64,000 nt of DNA from Ruminococcus sp. GTDB taxonomy: Bacteria > Bacillota > Clostridia > Oscillospirales > Ruminococcaceae. Made by a program: the position numbers and the translations under genes. Of the stretch, positions 10,385 through 48,178 are shown one piece after another. A model generated the notes under the pieces. That model did no database searches. It saw only the letters and a list, made by a program, of their open reading frames with translations, and had not been told where the DNA came from. The DNA is taken from the NCBI GenBank assembly GCA_017525915.1, contig JAFXSC010000011.1, positions 31,081 to 95,080 of the forward strand, in the 5' to 3' direction. Within the stretch, counting starts at the first letter, position 1. Every line of letters starts with the position of its first letter.

Positions 10385-11245
10385 TTATTTTAGTGCAATT
10401 GTTATTTGTTTAAAGAAATCCGCACTCCACAAGTCAAGTGAAGTGGTGTCTTTTATAAATGGGCGAACATCGTCCTTTGCCTGAGCGTAATCAATTGAAT
10501 CAAAACGTGAAAACAGCATTTGTTTTGCGTCTTCTATTGTGAAAATATTTTCGGATTTCCATACATCAGACTGAACGAGACGAGCTTTCAGATGTTCCTT
10601 ATTAATTGTAGCACCATGTGATAGATAAAATACATAATCATAAAGGTCTCTGCCTTTTACTCGGTTTTTCCACGAACGACATATAACTGCGTGAGCTTTA
10701 CCAGCAAAAAGCGATGGCATATCGTATAGTTTTACTTCATATGGTGAAGGAAGTAAGCGGTATTTATGCTCAAATGTTGCTCCAATAGGTGGATTTGTAT
10801 CAACCTCGAACTTGATTTTTATCTTTTCATCGCCTGCTATTGAACTTGTTATCGGATCAGAAGCATAGAACATAAGCATATGCTCTTTTGTATTACCTTT
10901 CAAAAAAGCTGAACGTATTGCTGATTCTTTAGTTTTCTGCTTTTCTGTTATTTCAACGTTTAAGCCATAAGAAGCTACTTCACTTTTTAGAACAGGGAAA
11001 TAATCTGACAGTTCAAAGGTTTCATCCGTTTTAATAAGGGAAAAATCAAGATCTTCGGAAAAACGGTCAAGCCCATAGAATATGCGAAGTGCAGTTCCTC
11101 CATAGAATGCAGCTTTTTTAAAGAATCCAGCTCTTGATAGTCCACAGAGAACTATTTCCTGCATTATCTCTTTTACGGCGTTCTTTTTATCAGTTAAACC
11201 GCCGGCATCATATTTATTCAGCATCTCGCTAATCATATTGTTCAT
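10385..11245 (-). CDS. abiEii: AbiEii-type nucleotidyltransferase toxin
   Basis: 286 residues. FYGGTALRIFYGLDR followed by FSEDLDFSL carries the GG(T/S) and DxD motifs of the DNA polymerase beta-like nucleotidyltransferase fold used by type IV AbiEii toxins, which block growth by modifying RNA such as tRNA 3' ends. KGRDLYDYVFYL is the second conserved block. The gene starts in a 4-bp overlap with the antitoxin gene, the standard order for AbiE loci, which act in phage defence and element maintenance. Confidence 0.9.
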   Translation of the reverse strand: MNNMISEMLNKYDAGGLTDKKNAVKEIMQEIVLCGLSRAGFFKKAAFYGGTALRIFYGLDRFSEDLDFSLIKTDETFELSDYFPVLKSEVASYGLNVEITEKQKTKESAIRSAFLKGNTKEHMLMFYASDPITSSIAGDEKIKIKFEVDTNPPIGATFEHKYRLLPSPYEVKLYDMPSLFAGKAHAVICRSWKNRVKGRDLYDYVFYLSHGATINKEHLKARLVQSDVWKSENIFTIEDAKQMLFSRFDSIDYAQAKDDVRPFIKDTTSLDLWSADFFKQITIALK

Positions 11246-11829
11246 TCTGCATCTCTCCTCAGATACTTTATCAGATATTTCAAGTTGTTACAATGATACA
11301 ATTCTCCAATTTGATATATATCTTCGTAATTAAGCCTTTCGAATTCGATTTTGTCAATTCTCAGGTCATCAAACAGCATTTTCTCGATGTCTCTTTGACT
11401 CGTCACTGGTGGCATAGTGTAAAGCTTATCACACAGAGCTTTTTCCGGAGAAGCAATCTTATATACATATCCATTCTCTTCCTTCATAACAACGCCATAA
11501 GGATACACTTCCGAAGGTACATCTCGATAGGTGAAATGACCGAAATGGTTTTCGTATTCCTTTGCCTTTTTCTTACTGAATGTAGCTGATGTAAAAGTAT
11601 AAACTGCTTCTGGTATTAATCCGTAAACGGACAATGCGTAATCAAATGACAGATATGATGGTCCGTATATTACACTCGCAAGACAATAGCCAGGTGTGTT
11701 TTTGTCGGTTTCATATATTCCCTTAGTTAGTTGAATCAATTCTCCGTTTTTCTTCATACGCATTATCTTACCAGCTGGATCACTATACTTATTAAGCTGA
11801 TCCGTTAACATTAAAGATGTTAAAATCAT
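11242..11829 (-). CDS. abiEi: AbiEi-type antitoxin / transcriptional autoregulator
   Basis: 195 residues from the ATG at 11829 (AGAGGTG six bases upstream; the GTG at 11838 overlaps that site). The N-terminus is a small winged-helix region with KIMRMKKNGELIQLTKGIYET. SYLSFDYALSVYGLIPE and YKIASPEKALCDKLY are typical of AbiEi/'type IV toxin-antitoxin' antitoxins. These neutralise AbiEii and repress their own promoter through inverted repeats, one of which is visible upstream. Confidence 0.88.
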   Translation of the reverse strand: MILTSLMLTDQLNKYSDPAGKIMRMKKNGELIQLTKGIYETDKNTPGYCLASVIYGPSYLSFDYALSVYGLIPEAVYTFTSATFSKKKAKEYENHFGHFTYRDVPSEVYPYGVVMKEENGYVYKIASPEKALCDKLYTMPPVTSQRDIEKMLFDDLRIDKIEFERLNYEDIYQIGELYHCNNLKYLIKYLRRDAE

Positions 11830-11842
11830 TATTTTCACCTCT

Positions 11843-42660: not shown

Positions 42661-42689
42661 TTGACATATCGGGACGATCGGCGTATAAT
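42661..42689 (+). promoter_or_regulatory. Promoter of the TIR/RyR operon
   Basis: TTGACA (42661-42666), 17 bp, TATAAT (42684-42689). AGAGGTGG precedes the ATG. Confidence 0.85.
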
Positions 42690-42748: not shown

Positions 42749-45700
42749 ATGAAAAACTATAAATACAAAGCGTTTATCAGCTACCGTCATCTCGAACCCG
42801 ATATGCAGGCTGCCGAAAAACTCCAGAAGCTCCTCGAAGGTTACAAGCCTCCGAAGAACCTTTCGGAAAATAAGGAGCACTGGCGAATTTTCCGCGATGT
42901 TTCAGAGCTCCAGTCAAGCAGCGACCTCAGTGAGGATATCCGCAATGCTATCGAGGATTCCGACTTCCTTATAGTCATCTGTTCGCCTGCGTACAACGAG
43001 TCCAAATGGTGTATGCAGGAGCTCACACGCTTCCGTGAACTTCACGGTGACACGAACGAGAATATCATCACACTTCTCGTTGCCGGTGAGCCGGATAAGG
43101 CTTTCCCTGAACTTCTCCGCTATACCGACATGAAGACCGTGGACGAGAATGGAGTTGAGAACACGGTCAAGGTCGAAGTCGAGCCGCTTGCCGCAAATAT
43201 CAAGGCTGATACTCTCAAGGCTTCGATGAAGAAGCTCAACACCGAGTACCTTCGTATAGCCGCGCCGCTTATCGGCTGCGATTTCAACGACCTCTACCAG
43301 CGCGAGAAAAAGCGCGAGGCTCAGCGCCGCATGAGGCTTTTCGGAGCAGCTTTTGCCGTGCTTTCGGTGATAACTGTCATCAGTGCAGCCTCCGCTGTTG
43401 CCATCAGCAAGAGGAATAAGGAGATAAAGGACAAGAACGACACTATCGAACAGCAGTACGGCAAAATCCAGGAGCAGTACGAGAAGATACAGGAGCAGTA
43501 CGACGACCTTCTTGTTGAAAACGCCGGACATCTTGCGGCTGAGTCCGAGGTGCTTTTCAAGAACAATGAGCTTATCCCGGCGATTCGGAAGTCGGTTGAG
43601 GCGCTCCCCTCTGAGGAAGGCGAAAAGCCGGTCATTCCCGAGGCTGAGTACGCTCTTTCGCGTGAGCTTGGAGCTTTTGAGGCTTATCAGACCGTTCCGA
43701 GGTATGCGCTCCGCCATGAAGCTGCGATAGAACAGCTCTCCTACATGGGCGGCGGCAAGAGCGTGGTCTCGCAGGACGCGACCGGCGTTTACTTCTGGAA
43801 GGCAGAGGACGGCTCGCTCATCAGAAAGCTCTCGCCGTCTGACAGCGAGTTTGCATCTGAAAAGTACGGTACCTCCAACAAGCTCACGGCTATTATCAAG
43901 GCTGACACTGACAAGACCGGAACGGTCCTCAGCTTTGCGGGCATTCCACAGAACAAGAGATACCTTACCGGAAATATCTTCGATGCTATCTACATCGGAT
44001 ATCAGCATAACGTTACCGATGAAGAAAAAGGCACCGGCGGAGACGTATATCTTTCCAATTCGGACGGAACTGTCTGGAGGCTAAATGGTGAGAACGGCGA
44101 TATCGTCTGGAAGGCACCAGTTCAGGAGGAGGCTTATTCCTGCATACAGGTGAAGTACGACGGCAGTCATATCCTTAGGCTGTGGAAAAACAAGCACATG
44201 ATGAGCGAGAACAACTACATCGCCGGTACCGATACCTATATCGACATAATTGACTGCGAGACCGGAAAAATAGCCGATTATGCGAAGATATCCGAGCTTG
44301 CGGACAATAGCTATACCTTCCTTGCTTCTGTTAATGTGCTGACATACAATGACGGCGTTCTGAGTGTATTCGTCAGCGCTTCCATCGGCATTGGCTCAGA
44401 CGGCGTCATAGCTTCATACAAGATAGAGGACCATAAACTCGTTCAGGCGGACAAGTATGAGATACCTGACCGCGCGAGCGTTTCCTCCAGAAAAGTCTTT
44501 GTAAGAAACACCGGCAGAGGACTTGTAACAGTCGTGAGCGACTGCGTTTTCTCCGGCAGCATTTCCTCTGTATCACGCTTTGAAGGCTCGCTCAGTGAGC
44601 CGGAATGGACTGTGGAACTTTCCGGCGGTCCGACCGGAAAATGCGAGATGTACACATTCAAGGGAAGTGAACTCGGCTGCGATTATGACGTTCTGGCTGT
44701 GGTTTACGAAGAGGGATTCAGCATCATCAACTATGAGACCGGCAGCGTGATAAGGAACGTTGCGCTTGATTCGGAAATTGCAGATGTTTCATTCAGCGAC
44801 AGGGGACTCATCATGTTCACTGTAAAGAGCGGTGCTGAGTACGCAGTTAGCGTAAAGGGCTATGTTTCTGAGAAACCGGTCAACAACGCATACCGTGTAC
44901 AGACATTCAATTCGTCATTAGATCTTTGTAGTTACAGCCTGAACAGATATGTCACAGCGGCGGAGTATTCCAGCACGGCGTACATACAGTTCAGCGACAA
45001 GACCTCTGCATTTATTCCCCTTGACATTGGTGAGGACAACTACTGCACGGAACTCGTTTCCTCCGACGACGGAGGCTGTGTCCTTATTTGCAGCAGGGAC
45101 TATTCCGGCGGCAGCAGTGACGGAACCGGAAGATTCTTTATCTACAATATCGGTACCGATAAGCTTATCGAGATAACCGATCTTAAAGGCAGCAATGTTG
45201 CGGCGACTGCATACTTCGGCGAAAAATTCGCCGCGGCTGTGACTGACGGCAGCGGTGCAAAGAAAATAGTCCTCATCGGCGCTCCTGACGGAAAGGTAAC
45301 AGCAGTTGCTGACACCGGAGACTTCAACAGTGCGGTGCGCCTGATAACGGACGGCAGCAGTATGTATTACAGGGCAAATTCTTCCAGTGATGTTTTAAGG
45401 ATAACTCCCGATGGCGGACGTACTTCATGGAAGAAGGACGGAAAGCTCAACGAGGACGGCATCTTCTGTCCTGTCGGAGAGAAGCTTGCAGTATATGCCT
45501 ATTACAATACAGATAAGACGCATAAGCTCGAATTTTACAGCTTTGACACCGGCGAGACCGTGACTGCCGATCATAACTTTGACGCTGCGGACGGAGTTGA
45601 GATAGCTCATATTTTCAGCATTGACGATAATACCTGCGGTGTGCTTCTCAGCAGCCGGGTGGTTCTCATTTTCGATACCGCAACGGGCAGGCTCACTTCC

Positions 45701-46168
45701 GAGATAAAGCTCAGCGGCATCAGTCAGGAGCCTGTTTCTGCTGAGGGCATCGAAGGCGGAAAATTCGCTGTTCTCTGCCGCGATTCCGTGCTCTATGAGG
45801 CTGATGCGAACGGTCTTACCGGCAGGAAGATCAGCCTTGAATTTGCAGACAGCTATAACGGGAAGAAGATATCTGAGGCTGACGCTTCAAATGACAGCTA
45901 CTTTGAGGTCAAGGCTTCCCCCGAGGACGGACAGCTCTACATAGTCTGGGGCGGCTCTCATGCATGGCTCATCGACACGGAGCAGTTCAAGCTGCGCTAC
46001 CGTATCGGCAGTTTCGCTTCTGCTTCACGCGGAAACAGCATAGTTTTCACCTTCGACCGCTTCAACGGAAAAGGGGGGTATTTCCCGGTGTATTCAGCTC
46101 AGCAGCTCAGGGAAGCGGCAGAAGAATATCTGTCTGACCTCGGCGAGACACCGGAGGCGGATAAATGA
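42749..46168 (+). CDS. TIR domain-transmembrane-beta-propeller-like protein
   Basis: 1139 residues. Residues 1-185 form a TIR domain: YKAFISYRHLEPD, IFRDVSELQ, DFLIVICSPAYNESKWCMQEL. Glu91 in WCMQE is at the place of the catalytic glutamate of NAD-cleaving TIRs. A single membrane segment (about 197-220) and a short heptad coiled coil (QEQYEKIQEQYDDL, about 235-255) follow. The remaining ~850 residues are beta-rich with recurring patterns (VYFWKAEDGSLIRKL, VWRLNGENGDIVWKA, VLIFDTATGRLTSEI), a WD-like propeller probably exposed outside. So an extracellular sensor could drive a cytoplasmic TIR. ATGA overlap with the next gene shows they act together. Confidence 0.88.
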   Translation: MKNYKYKAFISYRHLEPDMQAAEKLQKLLEGYKPPKNLSENKEHWRIFRDVSELQSSSDLSEDIRNAIEDSDFLIVICSPAYNESKWCMQELTRFRELHGDTNENIITLLVAGEPDKAFPELLRYTDMKTVDENGVENTVKVEVEPLAANIKADTLKASMKKLNTEYLRIAAPLIGCDFNDLYQREKKREAQRRMRLFGAAFAVLSVITVISAASAVAISKRNKEIKDKNDTIEQQYGKIQEQYEKIQEQYDDLLVENAGHLAAESEVLFKNNELIPAIRKSVEALPSEEGEKPVIPEAEYALSRELGAFEAYQTVPRYALRHEAAIEQLSYMGGGKSVVSQDATGVYFWKAEDGSLIRKLSPSDSEFASEKYGTSNKLTAIIKADTDKTGTVLSFAGIPQNKRYLTGNIFDAIYIGYQHNVTDEEKGTGGDVYLSNSDGTVWRLNGENGDIVWKAPVQEEAYSCIQVKYDGSHILRLWKNKHMMSENNYIAGTDTYIDIIDCETGKIADYAKISELADNSYTFLASVNVLTYNDGVLSVFVSASIGIGSDGVIASYKIEDHKLVQADKYEIPDRASVSSRKVFVRNTGRGLVTVVSDCVFSGSISSVSRFEGSLSEPEWTVELSGGPTGKCEMYTFKGSELGCDYDVLAVVYEEGFSIINYETGSVIRNVALDSEIADVSFSDRGLIMFTVKSGAEYAVSVKGYVSEKPVNNAYRVQTFNSSLDLCSYSLNRYVTAAEYSSTAYIQFSDKTSAFIPLDIGEDNYCTELVSSDDGGCVLICSRDYSGGSSDGTGRFFIYNIGTDKLIEITDLKGSNVAATAYFGEKFAAAVTDGSGAKKIVLIGAPDGKVTAVADTGDFNSAVRLITDGSSMYYRANSSSDVLRITPDGGRTSWKKDGKLNEDGIFCPVGEKLAVYAYYNTDKTHKLEFYSFDTGETVTADHNFDAADGVEIAHIFSIDDNTCGVLLSSRVVLIFDTATGRLTSEIKLSGISQEPVSAEGIEGGKFAVLCRDSVLYEADANGLTGRKISLEFADSYNGKKISEADASNDSYFEVKASPEDGQLYIVWGGSHAWLIDTEQFKLRYRIGSFASASRGNSIVFTFDRFNGKGGYFPVYSAQQLREAAEEYLSDLGETPEADK

Positions 46169-48123
46169 AGAACAGACAACGTACCCACAGAGTTCTGCTG
46201 ATACTGGCGATATTCTCCTTCATCATAGCGGCTGTTCAGGGAATGATATATTACAGTGGCTATGATACGTTCTTCAAGCTGCTTCTGGTACTCCAGAACA
46301 GTATCAATGCCTTCGGATTCAAGGCGACCATTTCGATAAAGGACGTTGTTGCGTTCATCAACAAAGACCCGAGTGCGGTCAATCTTACGGTCGGCTATGC
46401 CTACTGCATCGCCGTGTTCACTGCACCGTACTGCACGGTCTCCTTCCTGTACAAGTTCCTCGAGCGCATACTCAGGTTCTTCGTGAGCTTCCGCAGAAAG
46501 GGAAGCTGCGGTCATATCGTCATCTTCGGCTACAACGACGATGTGAAGTCGATGATAGCGAACACCTCCGCAGCTGACCTGAAGAAGGTGCGTATCCATA
46601 TAGTTACGGCTGCCGATATCGGTCATGCCGAGGTATATCGTCTCAACAAGAGCGGCTTCGCCGTACACTGTGTCGATGTGCTGAAGCTCCCGGAGAACGA
46701 ACTCCCGGAGGCTATGGACAGGATATGTGCCGATGTTGCCGAAAACCTTCTGCTCTTTGAGGACTCATCCATACGTAATTTCTCACTTCTCCAGCTTTTC
46801 AGGCTGAACGAGGCTGACAGCAGCAGGAGGCTCAGGCTCAGGAGCGGTGCAAAGGTATCCTGCCGCTGTGAGGAGGAGGGGATAAGCCGGCTCATTTCCG
46901 GCTATTACGACAAGGCTGCCGGCACGGATGCCTTCTATGACCTTGAACTGATAAGCCTTCCGGAATTGCAGATACACAGAATGTACAGCGAGCATCCGCT
47001 CCAGAGTTGTTATTCCGGCAGGGATGTCCCACTCAGGGAACAGACTGTCCACCTTCTTGTCGGAGGCCTCGGAAAACTCGGTCAGCAGGCTGTTTTGCAG
47101 GCTATGAACCTCGGCGTCGTACATGAGAACAACCGCATCGTCATTGATGTTTTCGACAAGGACATCAAAAACCGCCGTCAGCACTTCACAAGGCAGTTCA
47201 GCGAGGGAGCATTCACTTTCACCGACGATTCGATGACGCTCAGGAGTGATACCGCGGACGGCGAGCTCACCGTCAACTTCTTCGGCATTGACGCCGGTCA
47301 CAGGGACTTCTATTCGACTGTCCGGAGCAGGAACAGAGAGCTGCCCTACACCTACGCAGTCATTACCTTCGGAAGCGTTGATATGTCTGTTGAATGTGCA
47401 ATGGACCTGAACATGATATTCTGTGAGGAGAACGGGAAAGTTCCGCTGCTCGTGCGAATGGATGCAGACCGCCGCCTTGCGGAATATATAAAAGGCGAGA
47501 ACGATAGCCTTGCAGACCTTGAGATAATCGACGACCGGAGCTGCGTCATCAGCCTCGAAATGATAATCAACCGGAGCATCGACCGCCGTGCCAAGGACTA
47601 CAACCACTTCTACAACAATATCGCAATAATCACAGGCAATGAGACCGGAAACAGCGGCAATTCCGATGCTGACCCGGAGAGGGAGTGGAACAGCATCAGA
47701 ATGTTCAAGCGTTCGTCAAGCAAGGCTGCCGCTTATCATGATGAGGTCAAGGACGTAATAATTCCTGCGCTTGCCTCTGAATGCGGCGTTCAGCTGAGCG
47801 CAAAGCTCAGTGATCTCCTCGGTGAGAACGGCTCTCTTATGCGGTATACCGGCAGCGCGTGGCGTATGGAAGGCACTGAGCATGAGGTGCTCGAGAAGCT
47901 CTGTGCAGACCGTTTTGCGTATGAACTTGCGGCACTCGAACACAGGCGCTGGTGCTGTTATATGGCATCTGTCGGCTGGAGATACGGTGAGCGCAGCGAC
48001 AAGCTCCGCTGTAATCCCTGCCTGGTCACTCAGGAAAAGCTGATGGAGACGAGGCCGGAGATGTGCAAGTACGATCTCATGTCGCTGATGGCACGTTATT
48101 TATCTGACCGCGGGAAGCGGTGA
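46165..48123 (+). CDS. Membrane protein with two TrkA_N-like Rossmann domains and C-terminal RyR domain
   Basis: 652 residues. Two membrane segments lie at about 9-28 and 74-97. A first Rossmann domain starts GHIVIFGYNDDVKSMI (about 112) and a second HLLVGGLGKLGQQAVL (about 296), the look of NAD(H)-binding RCK/TrkA_N domains. The C-terminus FAYELAALEHRRWCCYMASVGWRYGERSDKL (from about 583) is an RyR domain, with the conserved E-H-xRW and GW(R)YG residues; bacterial RyR domains are thought to bind nucleotide-type ligands. It is coupled to the TIR gene by a 4-bp overlap. An ion-channel-like or receptor role is inferred. Confidence 0.85.
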   Translation: MKNRQRTHRVLLILAIFSFIIAAVQGMIYYSGYDTFFKLLLVLQNSINAFGFKATISIKDVVAFINKDPSAVNLTVGYAYCIAVFTAPYCTVSFLYKFLERILRFFVSFRRKGSCGHIVIFGYNDDVKSMIANTSAADLKKVRIHIVTAADIGHAEVYRLNKSGFAVHCVDVLKLPENELPEAMDRICADVAENLLLFEDSSIRNFSLLQLFRLNEADSSRRLRLRSGAKVSCRCEEEGISRLISGYYDKAAGTDAFYDLELISLPELQIHRMYSEHPLQSCYSGRDVPLREQTVHLLVGGLGKLGQQAVLQAMNLGVVHENNRIVIDVFDKDIKNRRQHFTRQFSEGAFTFTDDSMTLRSDTADGELTVNFFGIDAGHRDFYSTVRSRNRELPYTYAVITFGSVDMSVECAMDLNMIFCEENGKVPLLVRMDADRRLAEYIKGENDSLADLEIIDDRSCVISLEMIINRSIDRRAKDYNHFYNNIAIITGNETGNSGNSDADPEREWNSIRMFKRSSSKAAAYHDEVKDVIIPALASECGVQLSAKLSDLLGENGSLMRYTGSAWRMEGTEHEVLEKLCADRFAYELAALEHRRWCCYMASVGWRYGERSDKLRCNPCLVTQEKLMETRPEMCKYDLMSLMARYLSDRGKR

Positions 48124-48138
48124 ATTATATGAAACGAC

Positions 48139-48168
48139 AAAAAGCGCTCTTTACAAAAGGGCGCTTTT
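48139..48168 (+). terminator. Terminator of the TIR/RyR operon
   Basis: AAAAGCGCTCTTT / AAAGGGCGCTTTT (one G-T pair), loop ACA. It overlaps the -35 of the next promoter. Confidence 0.8.
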
Positions 48169-48178
48169 CGTGTATAAT
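48150..48178 (+). promoter_or_regulatory. Promoter of the flavin reductase gene
   Basis: TTTACA (48150-48155), 17 bp, TATAAT (48173-48178), embedded in the terminator stem of the operon before. The leader to 48305 holds one small hairpin GCGGC-GTTCT-GCCGC and no riboswitch that I recognise. Confidence 0.7.

What the first reader, a model, noticed from the sequence alone, without database searches (positions are those of the whole stretch)
42749..48123. Two-gene TIR / beta-propeller and Rossmann-RyR membrane system
Seen: a 1139-residue TIR-TM-coiled coil-propeller protein and a 652-residue membrane protein with two NAD-type Rossmann loops and an RyR domain, coupled by ATGA, with own consensus promoter and terminator. 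Known: TIR domains cleave NAD+ or make cyclic ADP-ribose-like signals; TrkA_N/RCK domains bind NAD(H); bacterial RyR domains are proposed ligand sensors in nucleotide-centred conflict systems. Inferred: an outside propeller senses an insult, TIR makes or destroys an NAD-derived signal, and the RyR/Rossmann membrane partner reads it, perhaps as a channel. The catalytic Glu91 is intact.
Basis: partly seen in the sequence, partly recalled or inferred. Interest (0 to 1): 0.85.

Follow-up and report, generated by a model that had tools for sequence, protein, structure and literature searches.

The report
TIR sensor paired with RyR-gated channel
A gut bacterium carries a two-gene unit in which a membrane sensor with a TIR enzyme domain sits beside a channel-like protein ending in the ryanodine-receptor domain that was recently shown, in phage proteins, to bind TIR-made signals; the pair may be a new relative of known bacterial immune signalling systems.

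Summary
Window 42749-46168 encodes a 1139-aa TIR / single-TM / coiled-coil / tandem beta-propeller protein. It overlaps by ATGA a 652-aa membrane protein with two RCK (TrkA-type Rossmann) lobes and a C-terminal RyR domain. The pair is a conserved unit: adjacent in 24 of 27 related loci, and both genes occur in 27 of the 29 genus genomes that have either. Flanking genes are mostly not shared. A homologous operon occurs in Fusobacterium, another phylum, and RCK-RyR relatives also lie beside unrelated TIR genes. The residues matching the RyDEP cADPR contacts His75, Trp78 and (less surely) Asp117 are invariant in ten family members; the TIR catalytic Glu is invariant in eight diverse TIRs. Best fold matches are TrkA/CASTOR gating rings, and tandem WD40 propellers. 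Most likely mechanism: the propeller senses an insult, TIR makes an ADP-ribose-type signal, RyR binds it, and the RCK ring changes a membrane conductance. Ligand, conductance and phage phenotype are inferred. Against exclusivity: several RCK-RyR relatives have no TIR beside them, and many similar TIR proteins lack the partner. An unread 2025 preprint on TIR systems may be prior art.

The parts
42661..42689 (+). sigma-70 promoter, exact TTGACA-17-TATAAT
   Evidence: 12 of 12 match; nine exact matches in the window
42749..46168 (+). gene 1: TIR / TM / coiled coil / tandem beta-propeller protein, 1139 aa
42749..43198 (+). TIR domain, about aa 1-150
   Evidence: PF13676 E 3e-14 over aa 9-135, ThsB_TIR 4e-6
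43019..43021 (+). E91, predicted catalytic Glu (SKWCMQE)
   Evidence: invariant in 22 of 22 rows of A2 and 8 of 8 diverse TIRs
43349..43405 (+). single transmembrane segment, aa 201-219
   Evidence: hydropathy 2.35; low-confidence region in the AF2 model
43400..43561 (+). long helix / coiled coil, aa 218-271
   Evidence: AF2 secondary structure
43685..46087 (+). beta-propeller region, aa 313-1113; the fast-diverging part
   Evidence: mean pairwise identity 0.48-0.49 against 0.82 for TIR in 22 sequences
46165..48123 (+). gene 2: membrane RCK-RCK-RyR protein, 652 aa
46165..46500 (+). membrane region, aa 1-112: TM1 10-28, short helix with QNSINAFGF, further helices 58-111
   Evidence: low model confidence
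46501..47844 (+). two RCK-type Rossmann lobes, aa 113-560
   Evidence: Foldseek TrkA gating ring 1e-7, CASTOR gating ring 1e-6, GsuK 6e-6; about 10% identity, TM-scores 0.3-0.5
47065..47082 (+). GxGxxG of the second lobe (GLGKLG, aa 301-306)
   Evidence: G301, G303, G306 invariant in the 26 rows of A1; G301 and G306 in the ten rows of A3
47911..48084 (+). RyR domain, aa 583-640
47941..47943 (+). H593, equivalent of RyDEP catalytic H75
   Evidence: aligned by HMMER to RyR chains; invariant in ten rows of A3
47950..47952 (+). W596, equivalent of RyDEP W78 (adenine contact)
48013..48015 (+). N617 at the place of RyDEP H100; His in five of ten rows of A3, Asn in five
48073..48075 (+). D637, probable equivalent of RyDEP D117
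   Evidence: invariant; the pairwise alignment would need a 3-residue gap
48134..48171 (+). hairpin after gene 2, likely end of the transcription unit
   Evidence: -18.1 kcal/mol, z -4.3; not listed by the terminator scan

Best explanation
A two-gene signal-and-effector system. Gene 1 is a membrane-anchored sensor: its fast-diverging double propeller, probably outside the membrane, perceives an insult, most likely phage- or envelope-related, and activates its cytoplasmic TIR enzyme. The TIR converts NAD+ into an ADP-ribose-type signal (2'/3'cADPR or similar). Gene 2 is the receiver: its cytoplasmic RyR domain binds the signal and, through the RCK ring, changes the conductance of its own membrane pore, so that ion flow stops growth or kills the affected cell. 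Shown by computation: anatomy, pairing, the presence of other TIRs beside relatives of gene 2, conservation of the catalytic and most ligand residues. Inferred: enzyme product, binding, gating, and a role in defence.
For: Pairing: 24 of 27 loci (gene 1 is split or cut in three of the 24; L027 is cut at the contig end, L025 has another TIR, L020 none). Of 120 genus genomes 28 have gene 1 and 28 gene 2, 27 both, 26 of these adjacent. Homologous operon in Fusobacterium and in G484 of another family. Other TIRs beside relatives of gene 2: L025, L118/L119, convergent, L197, L227, and with one gene between in L199; a DUF4062 protein, reported as TIR-like NADase (PMC13174449, abstract start only), in L198. 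In a class sample, a TIR_2 hit lies within 5 kb of a PF02026 hit in 10 of 27 genomes with RyR, all of different genera, against 0.2 expected. In trans: 11 of 22 genomes with a hit of the gene-2 profile have a gene-1-like hit, against 16 of 269 without. Ligand residues: read against RyDEP (PMC13232231). Folds. Sensor-like divergence of the propellers. Unshared flanks.
Against: Relatives of gene 2 in L020 and, within the three ORFs shown on each side, L228-L237, and those of L113-L116, have no TIR beside them; some sit at conserved sites. 16 of 27 class genomes with a gene-1-like hit gave no gene-2 hit. Close relatives of gene 2 stay in the genus: 1 of 291 class genomes, its own. Pfam calls no RyR in the Fusobacterium and G484 proteins; these rest on alignment and my own profiles. 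No K+ filter, a weakly hydrophobic second helix. H593 and D637 match the glycosidase dyad of RyDEP, so RyR could destroy the signal. No defence gene among the window proteins scanned near the pair. No wet evidence.
Confidence: 0.55

Rival explanations
1. Gene 2 is the off-switch, not the effector: its RyR domain hydrolyses or soaks up the TIR signal as phage RyDEP does, and the membrane and RCK parts only place or tune it. The TIR itself kills by NAD+ depletion.
For: RyDEP dyad H75/D117 is matched by H593/D637; stand-alone mini-RyR genes abut TIR genes in L093, L097, L098, a plausible host off-switch.
Against: Six of eight tested RyDEP homologues bind, none of them cleaves (PMC13232231); a TM plus tandem RCK ring is a costly frame for a sponge; L093, L097 and L098 hold both a larger RyR protein and a mini-RyR, so two roles seem to exist.
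Confidence: 0.2
2. A metabolic or envelope-stress regulator: the RCK lobes read NAD(H) level, TIR lowers NAD+, and the protein tunes ion transport. No antiviral role.
For: Canonical GxGxxG in the second lobe; of ten window proteins scanned, none near the pair hit PADLOC; relatives of gene 2 at conserved chromosomal sites in two genera of family f11 and, by eye, next to an alr gene in three g37 loci.
Against: Patchy presence, 28 of 120 in the genus, and unshared flanks fit an accessory system; propellers diverge much faster than TIR.
Confidence: 0.17
3. TIR as scaffold only: the pair signals by protein contact, without an NAD-derived molecule.
For: Not all TIRs are enzymes (established knowledge, recalled).
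Against: E91 invariant in 22 of 22 and in 8 of 8 diverse TIRs; relatives of gene 2 also lie beside unrelated TIRs and once beside a DUF4062 protein, so the shared item is more likely a small molecule than a contact surface.
Confidence: 0.08

Closest known systems
Thoeris (TIR ThsB plus ThsA effector)
   Same: Two-gene operon; TIR with catalytic Glu; partner with a predicted ligand domain for ADPR-type signals
   Different: The partner has RCK lobes and RyR, not SIR2-SLOG or a macro domain; the TIR protein is membrane-anchored with a double propeller; no PADLOC or NCBIfam hit for gene 2 and only weak Thoeris hits for gene 1
RyDEP, phage RyR-domain proteins (PMC13232231)
   Same: Same domain family; His, Trp and probably Asp of the ligand site kept
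   Different: RyDEP is a small phage anti-defence protein; here the domain is part of a host membrane protein operonic with the TIR; H100 is Asn
CASTOR/DMI1 and GsuK RCK channels, and TrkA
   Same: Tandem RCK gating-ring-like fold, N-terminal membrane helices
   Different: RyR domain at the C-terminus, no K+ channel signature, membrane part poorly modelled
Animal ryanodine receptors
   Same: RyR domain on a predicted ion channel; cADPR as a proposed regulator
   Different: No sign of the same pore; one RyR domain instead of four matched repeats; bacterial, beside a TIR
Apaf-1 and Dark
   Same: Double WD40-type propeller
   Different: TIR and TM here; no NB-ARC or CARD hit in the Pfam scan

Membership tests
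Thoeris | TIR protein with catalytic Glu | tested here: met
   PF13676 over cut-off, E91 invariant
Thoeris | Partner is a described Thoeris effector | tested here: not met
   Gene 2 has no PADLOC or NCBIfam match at E up to 1; types in the unread 2025 preprint could not be tested
Thoeris | TIR product activates the partner and protects from phage | not testable with these tools
   needs enzymology and phage assays
RyR domain (PF02026) | Score over Pfam cut-off in the window protein | tested here: not met
   19.6 bits against 27.4
RyR domain (PF02026) | Homology by profile and by relatives over cut-off | tested here: met
   A3 profile against PDB RyR E 1.5e-15; L199 relative RyR E 6e-16 and TrkA_N E 4e-15, both over cut-off; but no Pfam RyR in the L186 and L175 proteins
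RyR domain (PF02026) | Ligand residues H75, W78, H100, D117 of RyDEP | tested here: inconclusive
   H and W kept, D probably; all three invariant in ten; H100 is Asn here, His in five of ten
RCK-gated ion channel | Tandem RCK gating-ring fold | tested here: met
   Foldseek E 1e-7 to 1e-5 with partial TM-scores
RCK-gated ion channel | TM1-pore-TM2 and a known selectivity filter | tested here: inconclusive
   QNSINAFGF between helices is conserved in A1 but model confidence is low and no TVGYG filter is present
RCK-gated ion channel | Conducts ions | not testable with these tools
   -

The most novel reading that the evidence does not exclude
A bacterial counterpart of cADPR-gated ryanodine-receptor channels: TIR-made cyclic ADP-ribose isomers open an RCK channel through its RyR domain, as an immune effector class found in Bacillota and Fusobacteriota, to which phage RyDEP proteins would be the counter.
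Probability: 0.35. Interest if true: 0.95.

Novelty: new variant of a known kind. Interest (0 to 1): 0.8.

Why it matters
I found no tested host function for bacterial RyR domains in the papers searched. Phage RyDEP shows that the domain can bind and destroy TIR signals (PMC13232231). The link found here, a TIR hit within 5 kb of a RyR hit in ten genera and a RyR domain on a gating-ring-like membrane protein, suggests the host side: a receiver that turns the signal into a membrane event. If true, it adds an effector class to TIR immunity and makes the old question of cADPR action on ryanodine-type channels testable in a two-protein bacterial system.

Tried and rejected
K+ filter: the window protein reads TVGYA at 74-78, but the site lies at the start of a later helix and relatives read GIGYA, VVGYA or IIAYA, so it is not a filter. 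Mobile carriers: no gene-2 relative in the phage collection at E 0.01 or confirmed in viral contigs; one in the plasmid collection, in a 2.1-Mb Fusobacterium record labelled a plasmid. Defence island: of ten window proteins scanned, only an AbiE pair about 31 kb away hit PADLOC. Island control: ResIII in the 27 RyR genomes; in the printed rows (the listing is cut) I saw none within 5 kb of a RyR hit or 2 kb of a TIR hit, judged by eye. Profile comparison of A3 with the RCK protein of L187 gave nothing useful.

Limits of the counts. Several of the 22 genomes counted for the gene-2 profile match only over the RyR end or in pieces (G032, G043, G099, G126, G138, G223), and G000 and G045 have members in the profile itself. 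The binomial and Fisher values treat genomes as independent, which they are not. The correlated distances of genes 1 and 2 could also come from common descent alone. Class and phylum samples are unnamed, one genome per species.

Papers. PMC13232231: outline, main text parts 1 and 2 of 6, passages and part 1 of the references. PMC9503650 and PMC13142454: term searches inside the text only (RyR absent in both). PMC13174449 and PMC11204291: only the start of their abstracts in search listings. [quoted passage not shown] known to me by recall only). Literature searches whose listings showed no TIR plus RyR-channel system: all in one open-licence library.
Full report
What is there. Two ORFs lie at the stated coordinates, 1139 and 652 aa, coupled by ATGA, behind an exact sigma-70 promoter (nine such in the window) and before a stable hairpin (not listed by the terminator scan). 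The window lies in a 3.09-Mb genome, in which gene 2 has one match, itself; the related loci found are mostly Ruminococcus flavefaciens and kin.

Gene 1. TIR_2 E 3e-14 and ThsB_TIR 4e-6. One TM at 201-219; 7 K/R in the 16 residues before it and 6 in the 22 after it, a weak hint that TIR is inside and the propellers outside. The AF2 model (pLDDT 77.8, pTM 0.61) shows TIR, long helices and a mostly beta region 313-1113; Foldseek ranks tandem WD40 proteins and Apaf-1 highest, with low TM-scores. Over 22 sequences the mean pairwise identity is 0.82 for TIR and 0.48-0.49 for the two propeller halves, as expected for a conserved enzyme with a diversifying sensor. E91 is invariant in 22 of 22 and is one of seven invariant columns among eight diverse TIRs, two of them not of the gene-1 family.

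Gene 2. The AF2 model (pLDDT 80.6, pTM 0.77; membrane part poor) has TM1, short helices, a longer helix to 111, two Rossmann lobes and a helical C-terminus. Foldseek: TrkA gating ring 1e-7, CASTOR 1e-6, DMI1 4e-6, GsuK 6e-6, at about 10% identity and TM-scores of 0.3-0.5. The RyR domain is weak by Pfam but clear by profile. In PMC13232231, RyDEP contacts its ligand through H75, W78, H100 and D117, and six of eight tested homologues bind 2'/3'cADPR without cleaving it. In gene 2 the HMMER alignment places H593 on H75, W596 on W78 and N617 on H100. In an alignment of ten gene-2 proteins down to 18% identity, 17 columns are invariant, including H593, W596 and D637; residue 617 is His in five and Asn in five. 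D637 as the match of D117 is probable, not certain.

Pairing. Of 27 loci from genome contigs, 24 have gene 1 directly upstream (split in L006 and L017, cut in L011). L027 is cut, L020 shows no TIR by eye (3.5 kb upstream, 8 kb downstream), and L025 has a different 537-aa TIR upstream and another protein with a weak RyR end downstream. In 120 genus genomes, gene 2 is in 28 and gene 1 in 28; 27 have both, 26 adjacent. In G305 they lie on separate contigs; there, and in G386, gene 2 converges on an unrelated 362-aa TIR gene. Distances of genes 1 and 2 correlate (r 0.95, Mantel 0 of 5000). No flanking gene family is shared by more than 4 of the 28 loci compared, some of them short, so the two genes form the unit.

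Beyond the genus. Close relatives of gene 2 were found in 1 of 291 class genomes, its own. With wider profiles more appear. Fusobacterium vincentii carries a homologous operon, a 1018-aa TIR-WD40 protein and a 608-aa protein 3 nt apart; the 608-aa protein was found by tblastn (21% identity, E 2e-11) and keeps the invariant residues, but Pfam calls no domain in it over cut-off. G484 has a similar overlapping pair, its 626-aa protein again without a Pfam hit. In G631 and G256 an RCK-RyR-like protein abuts another TIR gene, in G604 two TIR genes lie one gene away on either side, in G715 a DUF4062 protein is next to it; in G077 the neighbour begins like a DUF4062 protein, by eye. In G483 a relative of gene 2, split in two ORFs, lies by a gene-1-like TIR. 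In a class sample of 391 genomes, 27 have a PF02026 hit, against 0 of 14 control genomes; in 10 of the 27, each of a different genus, a TIR_2 hit lies within 5 kb (nine within 2 kb), against 0.2 (0.08) expected. In the same sample 13 of the 27 have a gene-1-like hit, against 24 of the other 364. With the gene-2 profile, 22 of 291 class genomes have a hit, some only over the RyR end; 11 of these have a gene-1-like hit, against 16 of 269 others, often not adjacent, as in genera g17, g37 and g54. The phylum sample gave 5 of 299, its own genome included.

Results against. Relatives of gene 2 in L228, L229, L230 and L231 (G013, G050, G061, G138) have no TIR within the three ORFs shown on each side and their genomes no gene-1-like hit. 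Those of g17, g37 and g54 have no TIR neighbour, several of them at conserved chromosomal sites. Many gene-1-like proteins stand without gene 2: of 24 such genomes lacking a PF02026 hit, 16 gave no hit of the gene-2 profile either. So the RCK-RyR protein is often, not always, tied to TIR.

Mechanism. The simplest reading that covers the changing TIR partners is a diffusible TIR product read by RyR and passed to an RCK ring in the membrane. The pore, the ligand and the antiviral role are inferred. The His/Asp pair leaves open that RyR cleaves the signal.

Prior knowledge. Thoeris works in a similar way with other effectors; gene 2 matches none of the effectors searchable here, so I do not file it as Thoeris. 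RyDEP is the phage-side relative. The listings of the ten literature searches named under Tried and rejected showed no TIR plus RyR-RCK operon, but the most relevant preprint (Yirmiya 2025) is not held.

Noticed in passing
L093 8329-8628, L097 4252-4563, L098 2134-2430: Stand-alone RyR proteins of about 100 aa abut or overlap a TIR gene and follow a larger RyR protein with hydrophobic N-terminus (by eye): a three-gene cassette in three genera. Candidate host off-switch like RyDEP.
   Followed up: partly
L164, L168, L169, L171, L172, L174, L180: Gene-1-like TIR genes with no gene 2 beside them lie next to a DHH-type phosphoesterase (Pfam checked for L168 only; the others by eye).
   Followed up: no
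L165 3413-5113, L182 8683-10338, L199 8670-10472, L198 6486-8273: SLOG-like proteins (TGHR motif by eye; weak YAcAr hit in L182) next to gene-1-like or RCK-RyR genes.
   Followed up: partly
L025 10035-11987: A 650-aa protein with a probable HD motif (by eye) and a weak RyR-like end (E 0.075) directly after the gene-2 relative.
   Followed up: no
window 10385-11838: AbiEi/AbiEii toxin-antitoxin pair.
   Followed up: no
L187 7046-8493: MT836850.1, labelled Bacteriophage sp., looks by eye like a Bacteroidota chromosome piece; a mini-RyR gene overlaps the gene of a membrane protein with a near-cut-off Slo-like RCK hit.
   Followed up: partly
L186: NZ_CP084075.1 is labelled a plasmid but is 2.1 Mb and looks chromosomal.
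   Followed up: no
window, whole: Nine exact TTGACA-N16..18-TATAAT sites in 64 kb against 0.01 expected: near-perfect consensus promoters are common here.
   Followed up: no
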